Source: Liolophura sinensis
Taxonomy: Eukaryota; Mollusca; Polyplacophora; Chitonida; Chitonidae
Length of the DNA: 64,000 nucleotides
Reading direction: 5' to 3'
Assembly: GCF_032854445.1 (NCBI RefSeq)
Contig: NC_088305.1
Span: forward strand, 441,001 to 505,000
Shown: one piece after another, positions 12,801-24,237 of the stretch
Numbering within the stretch: position 1 is the first letter of the stretch
How the letters are laid out: the number at the start of each line of letters is the position of its first letter
The notes under the pieces: model-generated
Database searches by the model: none
Told to the model about the DNA's origin: nothing
What the model saw: the letters and a program-made list of their open reading frames with translations, nothing else
Program-made: the position numbers and the translations under genes

Positions 12801-15800
12801 TGTTTGTAAGAAATGAACGAAAGTATTTTTAAGTGCTCCATTTAGTGATGTCTACCTTGATTTTTAGAGGTCTTTTCCTAAAAAGTAATACCAAAAGAAG
12901 CCATTCTACAGAAATAAAAAAAGAAACGTAAAACCAAAGCTCAAGCCGACCTCTCGACCCAATATTAACAAATTCACTTCATTACCCTAAACTGAAAACT
13001 TCTCATTTTGGCATCAACATCAACAGTTGTTTTTGTAAAATGCAACATCTGAATGTTACCAGCAGCTTAAATTCAATCACACCAATTTTCAGGGAAACTT
13101 TGTCATGGTTTATAACTGAGAAAAAAAATTATGTTACCTTATGTTGTTTTTTTTAATTTCAATATGATAATATCCTATACGTTACATCTTATCCAAATCT
13201 TATCAGAATCAAACACTACAGCAGATGACACAAACCTCCTCTCCAAAAAGTTGTTTGGAAGGTAAAATGATATAAAATGGGAAAAATAAGTTTCAGCAAA
13301 AGTAATTCATCTTTACAAAACACATTCTCAGAGAGATTGAATTTAAACAGCTACACATCTGTATTTAGATAAAGTAGATGTAGTAGATAGTAAGTAAGAT
13401 GTTTGGATTTTGAAATGCAGCTAACAGACAATTGTTATTGATAAGTAAGCTTGAGAAACAAGACCCTTTGACACATGCATACCTCCAAACTGTCACTTCC
13501 ATCAGCCTCTCTGTCAATGATGTCAAAGATTTCCTCATATAGACGCTCAGCCTGCAACACCAGAACAAAACAGGAGATTGGGCGGATGTCATTGAGGCCA
13601 GAAAGTCGTTCATTATTGTGCAACGGTATTAAACTTTCTAGTTATAGCACAAAATTTATTACAGAAGAAAAAAAAAGACTCCATTTGTTAAAATCACCCT
13701 AAGTTCAGTTGGGGAGTTTTAATACTGCCTTTGATCCAGAGAGAGGTAATCAAATTAGCATTAGCTAGACTGGAACACAAAGTGACCGCATTGGTGGGCA
13801 ACATTATGGTGGGAGGGAACCGGGCAGAAACAGGGCAGAACCCACGACCATCCGCAGGGTGCTGACAGACCTTCATACAGCCTGAGAGGAAGCTGGAATG
13901 GGCTGGACTTGAACTCCGTGACTGCACTGGTGAGAGGCTCCTGGGTAACTGTGCCTAACTGGCATGGTAACCAAGTCAACCATGGAGGTCTCCGTGAGTT
14001 TAAAGCTATTTTAGGTAGTATTTCAGCCGAATCGCATGACAGTGTACAACATGTTAGAACAATGACAAAAATAAAATCAACCAAAATGAACAAAAATCAG
14101 TGAATATTCCGGTAGCATTTTAATATATTACTGATTCAGGAAATGGTAAAAAAAGTTGACAAGCCTCTGACCTGAGAATGACCGCTGGCCCAGTTGTTAC
14201 CTGCCCCACCCCCGTGTTTGGACAGGTAGACATTTTCAGGGTTATACAAATTGGCGTAGGGAGAGTTCAGGATGCTGTTGATAACCCGGGGCTCCAGGTC
14301 CAGCAAAACAGCTCTGGGGATGTAATGTTCATCATCAGCCTGCAAAGCAAAAGTGAATGTATGAATACAGAAGTGAAAATATGACAATGAAAGTGAGTGT
14401 GTTTGAAAAAAAGAGAACAGAGTGAAAGTTTGTGAAAGTGAAACTTGTATGTTTGTAGTGTTTGTTGTTTGACTCGTCTTAGATACTACATGTGAATGTT
14501 GTAGACCTTACATTCAACCACCTGTACACAGAACAAGACAGATATACCTAGCACGTGCTACTCAGTTCCTACAGTTACATTCATGGTACAGCTGGTGTAT
14601 TTATCAATGCCATAAGTCTTAACATCACAAAAAATGTCTTCATCTAGTCTTCGCTGCACAGGGGTCAGGGCCATATTTAGAAAAAAAAATGATGGCTTTA
14701 AAACCGATTTCAGAGAGCCATTTCGGAATTAAATCAAAATTCAAAGTCTTTCCAAAACACTTTGATTCTGGTAGCGAAAGTTGGATACATATGGCTTAAG
14801 ATAATGCTGATGAGGTGGACAAAATTTTACTTAAAAATAAGCCTTAACATCGTATTTCAAATTCAGAGTGAAGTCTGAAATGTGATTGTGAAATCAGTTC
14901 CTGATTACCAAATTTAAAGGTAACAATGTGATATACCGCATTTAGAAATGTTACAAAATGCAACTCGAATTATGCTTTCTGGGAGTTCTTCAGTGAAAAA
15001 AAGAAAATTTGTACAAAAAAAACAAACCTTTTATTTGTAAATAACCACATTTTCATGTTTGATCACCTGGAGAGGCCATTGTTTTCTAAAACTACTTTTC
15101 TGAAACAACTTAGGTATAGCTCTAGGGATACTACATAAAATGTCCTTGACAAACAAGATGTTTTTTTTCTGGACTGTCTATAGGAAAACCACCCATACCT
15201 CCTCACCACTGTAATGCTACACAGTTATATTATACAGAATACAGAGTGAAAACATAAAAAGGTAGACACATGTAGCACACTACATACCAGCTCATGATGA
15301 ATCCAGCTAACCTGGTAGATAGCACACTACATAACAGCTCATGATGAATCCAGCTCACCTGGTATATACATGTAGCACACTACATACCAGCTCACGATGA
15401 ATCCAGCTCACCTGGTATATACCACACTACATACCAGCTCACGATGAATCCAGCTCACCTGGTAGATACCACACTACATAACAGCTCATGATGAATCCAG
15501 CTCACCTGGTAGATACCACACTACATAACAGCTCATGATGAATCCAGTTAACCTGGTAGGTAGCACACTACATAACAGCTCATGATGAATCCAGCTCACC
15601 TGGTAGGTAGCACACTACATAACAGCTCATGATGAATCCAGCTCACCTGGTATATACCACACAACATAACAGCTCATGACAAATCCAGCTCACCTGGTAG
15701 ATACCACACAACATAACAGCTCATGATGAATCCAGCTCACCTGGTAGGTAGCACACTACATAACAGCTCATGATGAATCCAGTTAACCTGGTAGATACCA

Positions 15801-24237: not shown

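What the first reader, a model, noticed from the sequence alone, without database searches (positions are those of the whole stretch)
15262..22130. A 6.9-kb array of ~146 splice-donor copies, better than the native donor, right after TUBG1 exon 3
Seen: the 47-bp unit on the transcribed strand contains CTACCAG|GTGAGC, and the array runs into the exon 3 end TATCAG|GTTAGC with matching sequence beyond it (TGGATTCATCATGAGCTG). The native donor has T at +3; most units have the consensus GTGAG. So a conserved essential gene presents about 146 tandem decoy 5' splice sites downstream of a weaker real one. Use of a decoy adds 47n bases and shifts frame unless n is a multiple of three. Inference: either exon definition suppresses decoys, U1 binding along the array has a role, or mis-splicing gives a fraction of decay-targeted transcripts.
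Basis: partly seen in the sequence, partly recalled or inferred. Interest (0 to 1): 0.86.

Follow-up and report, generated by a model that had tools for sequence, protein, structure and literature searches.

The report
Repeated splice-donor array in chiton gamma-tubulin
In a chiton (a mollusc), the start of a gamma-tubulin intron has been copied about 144 times in a row, splice signal included, and smaller copies of the same event sit at other exon ends in this and other basic genes, so the animal's splicing machinery must pick one true cut site next to equal or better copies.

Summary
A 47-bp array (15276-22134, 144 units in register) begins at the exon 3 donor of an intact 12-exon gamma-tubulin gene and fills 88% of intron 3; 121 units read GTGAGC, which pairs better with U1 than the native GTTAGC. 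It is not unique. The genome matches the published chiton assembly Liolophura 'japonica', since corrected to L. sinensis. The same gene has a 16-bp donor duplication at exon 6, a 77-bp array at exon 11 whose units repeat 28 of 29 nt of exon, and a 39-bp acceptor duplication at exon 2. Two other gene families gave donor-spanning arrays in CCT3 (two), CCT5 and PSMB1: 4 of 75 exon ends tested. These resemble the 'mirages' described in amphioxus, here in a mollusc and much longer. Random non-coding positions lie in tandem repeats at least as often (69 of 679), and the donor motif is not specially conserved within the array, so I read it as tolerated minisatellite growth, not a selected device. The exon-proximal units keep the native T at +3; the 'better' G form looks derived. 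Use of the native donor is inferred from the intact coding sequence; no RNA was available.

The parts
15276..22134 (-). 47-bp tandem array, 144 units; unit 1 includes the native exon 3 donor; covers 6,853 of the 7,789 nt of intron 3
22129..22190 (-). TUBG1 exon 3 (62 nt), ends TATCAG|GTTAGC
11950..11980 (-). 16-bp x1.9 perfect duplication spanning the exon 6 donor (AACGACAG|GTGAGAT), decoy at +16 with the same U1 energy as the native site
1..721 (-). 77-bp array spanning the exon 11 donor; runs out of the window to C11:440686; copies match 28 of 29 nt of the exon 11 end
22943..23019 (-). 39-bp x2 duplication (89% matches) spanning the exon 2 acceptor; the upstream copy keeps CTACAG
9068..10089 (-). 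Arrays of about 20-bp units starting 12 nt into intron 7; near the donor, no exon sequence seen by eye (the self-alignment is uninformative here)
24189..24237 (-). TUBG1 exon 1 (coding part)
22906..22956 (-). TUBG1 exon 2
14172..14339 (-). TUBG1 exon 4
13483..13551 (-). TUBG1 exon 5
11973..12052 (-). TUBG1 exon 6
10101..10227 (-). TUBG1 exon 7
8828..8914 (-). TUBG1 exon 8
8225..8374 (-). TUBG1 exon 9
3637..3789 (-). TUBG1 exon 10
696..857 (-). TUBG1 exon 11 (exon 12 lies outside the window, from C11:437615 downwards)

Best explanation
A 'mirage'-type minisatellite. A short duplication (probably between TAYCAG at the exon end and the same motif 42-47 nt into the intron) copied the donor and its flank; slippage or unequal exchange then grew it to 144 units. 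Because every copy lies downstream of the original donor, inside the intron, the exon stays intact and growth is tolerated as long as the spliceosome mostly uses the exon-adjacent donor. The stronger G at +3 arose in the array and spread through its interior by homogenisation; the units nearest the exon keep the T. Shown: the array, its register with the donor, the polarity, the same thing at other exon ends. Inferred: the order of events, neutrality, and dominant use of the native donor.
For: Unit 1 is the native donor and the first 8 units all have T at +3; G dominates further in. Proximal units differ most from the consensus (mean 5.5 mismatches in units 1-8, 1.5 in units 21-124), as expected if array edges escape homogenisation. 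Several stages are present in one gene: 2 copies (exon 6 donor, exon 2 acceptor), a longer array with 28 of 29 nt of exon (exon 11), 144 copies (exon 3). Other genes: CCT3 two donors, CCT5 one, PSMB1 one, units of 60-109 bp with exon sequence (identities). The rate at exon ends is not above background: donors 4 of 75, random non-coding positions 69 of 679, Fisher P 0.22. The donor motif is not specially conserved. The coding sequence is intact. Amphioxus mirages have the same anatomy, and the authors state that Adh3 data and globin RT-PCR suggest regular splicing is not disturbed (PMC3087553, passages).
Against: No RNA was available, so native donor use is unproven. The exon 3 unit shares only 6 nt with the exon (5 of 6 identical), so for this array 'spans the boundary' leans on the exon 6, exon 11 and other-gene cases. 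A passage of PMC5933811 cites Eperon et al. that when U1 sits on two donors more than 40 nt apart the downstream one is preferred, which would predict decoy use here. The nearest decoy (unit 2, +47) has lost its GT, which could hint at selection, although the nearest decoys at CCT3 donor 2, CCT5 and TUBG1 exon 6 are intact. A second gamma-tubulin that would relax the need for correct splicing is not excluded: the genome search listed none (other matches 31-42% identical) but found only 2 of this gene's own 12 exons and scored 93 of 174 candidates.
Confidence: 0.75

Rival explanations
1. U1-recruiting enhancer: the array loads U1 downstream of a weak donor of a short (62 nt) exon and helps define it, like the natural U1 binding reported downstream of the PAH exon 11 donor.
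For: 122 array sites pair better with U1 than the native donor; U1 bound downstream of a donor can enhance its use while itself being used rarely (PMC5933811, abstract and passages); PSMB1 also has a weak native site with stronger decoys, 2 of the 4 copies scored.
Against: Donor positions are not specially conserved in the unit; arrays also sit at strong donors (CCT5 -11.8, CCT3 first donor -10.6, TUBG1 exon 6 -11.1); exon ends are not enriched for arrays.
Confidence: 0.1
2. Poison extension: a share of transcripts uses a decoy, gains a stop and is degraded, tuning gamma-tubulin level by array length.
For: All 140 pattern-matched decoys give a premature stop.
Against: Most out-of-frame intronic decoys would do so; in the second CCT3 array six 66-bp units stay open in frame, so arrays are not all stop-bearing. 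No RNA data either way.
Confidence: 0.1
3. Dual-specific or recursive splicing: CAG|GT in each unit serves as acceptor and then donor, removing the intron stepwise.
For: AGGT sites can act both ways in human, and such introns are enriched in tandem-repeat genes (PMC10809524, abstract and passages); most units have AGGT (column counts).
Against: Only 8 of the 15 nt before the unit's AG are pyrimidines, and 47 nt leaves little room for an intron (general knowledge).
Confidence: 0.03
4. Inserted dispersed repeat or satellite that happened to land at the donor.
For: The window is rich in minisatellites.
Against: A 401-base search found the unit only at this array (23 matches; that tool skips very common words). 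A 21-mer with up to 2 mismatches gave 146 hits; of the 100 listed, 96 lie in the array and 4 are lone two-mismatch hits elsewhere. Register with the donor.
Confidence: 0.02
5. Assembly artefact.
For: Array length is close to the mean HiFi read length of 8,347 bp at 14X (PMC11068029, passages), so the exact copy number may be off.
Against: Units carry ordered variants, and similar arrays recur in other genes.
Confidence: 0.02

Closest known systems
Amphioxus 'mirage' minisatellites (Adh3, globins BflGb6 and BflGb9, TnC; imperfect ones in PGBD5)
   Same: Tandem copies that include an exon-intron boundary, many copies with AG/GT signals, at donors and acceptors, in otherwise ordinary genes (PMC3087553, PMC3902484, passages).
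   Different: Here in a mollusc; 144 units of 47 bp, against 6 and 3 units in the two haplotypes of BflGb6; most decoys pair better with U1 than the native site. Length instability and splicing were not testable here.
Human interferon-induced minisatellite providing multiple splice donor sites (Turri, Cuin and Porter 1995)
   Same: By its title, a minisatellite whose units supply splice donors.
   Different: Title seen only in reference lists; the paper is not held. From recall: gene 6-16/IFI6, 12-bp units, several really used as donors. Use in the chiton is unknown.
Intron gain by tandem duplication of AGGT proto-splice sites
   Same: Tandem duplication that copies a splice site.
   Different: No new intron here; the copies stay inside an existing intron. 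Model seen in passages of PMC3087553; PMC4974935 seen only as a search listing.

Membership tests
Mirage minisatellite | Head-to-tail minisatellite in register with an exon-intron junction | tested here: met
   144 units, unit 1 = native donor
Mirage minisatellite | Unit contains exon sequence as well as intron sequence | tested here: inconclusive
   Exon 3 array: only TAYCAG, 5 of 6 nt. Clearly met at TUBG1 exon 11 (28 of 29 nt), exon 6 (8 nt), CCT3, CCT5, PSMB1
Mirage minisatellite | Copies carry splice signals | tested here: met
   142 of 144 units keep GT
Mirage minisatellite | Length instability between alleles or cells | not testable with these tools
   one assembly, no reads
Mirage minisatellite | Regular splicing undisturbed | not testable with these tools
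   no RNA; only the intact 453-codon frame
Multi-donor minisatellite (human 6-16) | Several units used as donors | not testable with these tools
   no RNA; the defining feature itself is from recall and a title
Dispersed element or satellite | Copies at other loci | tested here: not met
   the latter with 100 of 146 hits listed
Dual-specific / recursive splice site array | Unit works as acceptor and donor | not testable with these tools
   AGGT present; weak pyrimidine content, 8 of 15

The most novel reading that the evidence does not exclude
Donor arrays in this genome are natural saturation tests of splice-site choice: over a hundred tandem donors with better U1 pairing fail to displace a weak upstream one, which would mean that position next to the exon, not strength, decides in this animal, and the array may even help the weak donor by concentrating U1.
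Probability: 0.15. Interest if true: 0.8.

Novelty: new member of a known kind. Interest (0 to 1): 0.5.

Why it matters
Mirages are described for amphioxus in the passages I read; finding the same anatomy in several basic genes of a chiton suggests that other minisatellite-rich genomes make them too. They offer ready-made natural experiments on how the spliceosome picks one donor among many equal or better neighbours, a question normally approached with designed minigenes.

Tried and rejected
Lancelet origin: first suspected because mirages are known there; rejected after the mitochondrial gene order and invertebrate code (genes named by eye) and the match of scaffold count and single scaffold lengths to the Liolophura assembly. 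GFP searches found nothing and prove nothing. Special attraction of arrays to donors: the TUBG1 gene alone suggested it, but the other genes do not. Acceptor avoidance: acceptors 1 of 76 against 67 of 679, P 0.0096; suggestive, small sample, so not claimed as a result. Adh3-type gene (Adh3 is a known amphioxus mirage gene): no boundary-spanning array at its 8 exon matches. A role for conserved U1 sites: not supported. Molluscan precedent: one search listed a Conus gene-structure paper (PMC3862624); its passages speak of microsatellites in introns, not of repeated splice sites.

Limits of the exon-end test: its rule was written after I had seen the arrays of both families. Exon ends are profile-match ends, not curated boundaries. 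The control positions cluster in a few arrays, so the Fisher tests overstate independence, and some may lie in unrecognised exons. Rows dropped: 3 of 50 Cpn60/TCP-1 matches (long-exon genes) and 3 of 11 Adh matches were not fetched; of the 76 exon matches used, one donor side was too close to a fetched end to test. In one search a fifth donor was flagged (CCT3, profile hit 918-1332); inspection put the true donor at about 1047 with the array starting 11 nt later, so it is not counted; the acceptor side of the same hit, true exon start about 948, is the 1 of 76. In one search the search strings missed some copies (for example the nearest ones at PSMB1 and at the first CCT3 donor), so its counts are of copies scored.

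Full report
What is there. The array is real and at the stated place: TRF 15276-22131, 47 bp, 143.8 copies; 144 units in register by alignment to the repeated consensus. It begins at the donor of exon 3 of a gamma-tubulin gene on the minus strand. Twelve exons joined give 453 codons with no stop; the first 133 residues match PDB gamma-tubulin-1 chains end to end. Intron 3 is 7,789 nt, of which 6,853 nt is array. The genome search with this protein listed no second gamma-tubulin among 95 matches (other matches 31-42% identical), but it listed only 2 of this gene's own 12 exons and scored 93 of 174 candidates, so a second copy is not excluded.

Whose genome. The mitochondrial contig has cox3-nad3-nad2-cox1-cox2-atp6 on one strand and nad1-nad6-cob-nad4L-nad4-nad5 on the other, read with the invertebrate code (cox1 by profile, the other genes named by eye; the likeness to the ancestral mollusc order is from recall). 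The assembly has 632 contigs, and contigs C1, C11 and C3 have 96,433,062, 32,819,725 and 27,489,247 bases, which are the published count, longest scaffold, scaffold 7 and scaffold 11 of Liolophura 'japonica' (PMC11068029, passages). The total held, 609,464,459, is 31,234 bases short of the published 609,495,693. The species was later corrected to L. sinensis (PMC12441733, whole text).

Donor strength. The native site CAG|GTTAGC pairs with U1 at -7.1 kcal/mol, the common unit CAG|GTGAGC at -11.1; 122 array GT sites beat the native one, against 4 in the remaining 935 nt. But native donors of this gene range from -5.3 to -11.1, and 4 of 11 are weaker than exon 3's. The stronger form looks derived: T at +3 in 12 of the first 15 units and 9 of the other 129. 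Proximal units differ most from the consensus, in line with the report that cluster boundaries escape homogenisation in an amphioxus globin mirage (PMC3087553, passage). Use of any of 140 pattern-matched decoys yields a premature stop. The decoy nearest the exon (unit 2) has lost GT, one of only two such units; at CCT3 donor 2, CCT5 and TUBG1 exon 6 the nearest decoy is intact, so I do not read this as selection.

It is one of many. In the same gene: exon 6 donor duplicated once (16 bp); exon 11 donor in an array of 77-bp units, with copies that match 28 of 29 nt of the exon end, one of them at the far end of the array; exon 2 acceptor duplicated once (39 bp). To look beyond this gene I took exon matches of two conserved families chosen without regard to repeats, Cpn60/TCP-1 (47 of the 50 matches listed, in 9 gene regions) and proteasome (all 21), plus 8 of the 11 matches listed for an Adh3-type family, all 8 in one gene. 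Of 75 testable donor-side ends, 4 are followed by tandem copies of themselves: CCT3 twice, CCT5, PSMB1 (gene names by PDB match); a fifth flagged row was an exon-end error. Of 76 acceptor-side ends, 1 (CCT3). Random non-coding positions in the same sequences: 69 of 679 and 67 of 679. Donors are therefore not hot spots (P 0.22) and acceptors are, if anything, avoided (P 0.0096); the test was designed after the arrays had been seen and its controls are not fully independent. Of the copies scored, those with the same U1 energy as the native site are 3 of 6 in CCT5, 9 of 10 in the second CCT3 array and 1 of 5 in the first; in PSMB1, 2 of 4 are stronger.

Constraint. Within the TUBG1 array the donor 9-mer ranks 13th of 47 windows in conservation and the GT pair 9th of 47, with ties. 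This gives no sign of selection to keep the decoys or to remove them.

Mechanism. I conclude that short tandem duplications arise freely in this minisatellite-rich sequence, that those crossing a donor leave the exon whole because the copies fall in the intron, and that they then grow. This requires that the exon-adjacent donor usually wins. That is inferred from the intact gene and from the amphioxus reports that mirages do not disturb splicing (passages), not observed. A contrary published observation, that with two occupied donors more than 40 nt apart the downstream one is preferred, is cited in PMC5933811 (passage); this makes the RNA test worthwhile.

Known or new. The kind is known: amphioxus mirages (PMC3087553, PMC3902484, passages; the original Adh paper is not held) and a human minisatellite with multiple splice donors (title in reference lists only). 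Searches for molluscan or chiton cases listed none that I recognised as such; a listed Conus paper speaks of microsatellites only in the passages found. Word searches inside the assembly paper ('tandem', 0 hits) and a five-chiton genome paper ('tandem repeat' and 'minisatellite', 0 hits each, PMC12005716) found nothing. The library lacks most subscription papers. New here, as far as these searches go: the phylum, the size, and that most decoys outscore the native site.

Noticed in passing
window 46101-51736: A 5.6-kb array of a 36-bp unit, about 158 copies, comparable in size to the TUBG1 one; its relation to any gene was not worked out.
   Followed up: no
window 30547-30822 (+): A RETREG1-3 reticulon-homology domain lies about 6 kb from TUBG1 exon 1 on the other strand. 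From recall, RETREG3 neighbours TUBG1 in human too, so the pair may be old linkage.
   Followed up: partly
L015 (CCT3), second donor array, gene-strand 7384-8238: Six successive 66-bp units (22 codons each) stay in frame without a stop, so use of these decoys would insert 22-residue repeats into CCT3.
   Followed up: partly
L015 (CCT3), gene-strand 407-949: A 41-bp array of about 13 copies abuts the acceptor of an exon starting at about 948; the copies shown repeat the ...TGTACAG end.
   Followed up: partly
G000 contig C99: Contig of 108,685 bases holding seven cox1 matches about 15.5 kb apart: a mitochondrial concatemer, likely an assembly product.
   Followed up: no
window 1013-2531, 3235-3484, 3882-5117: Further arrays in TUBG1 introns 10 and 9 that stop about 90-160 nt short of the nearest exon.
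   Followed up: partly
window 61403-61642 and 62634-62879 (-): Thrombospondin type 1 domains of a spondin-like gene.
   Followed up: no
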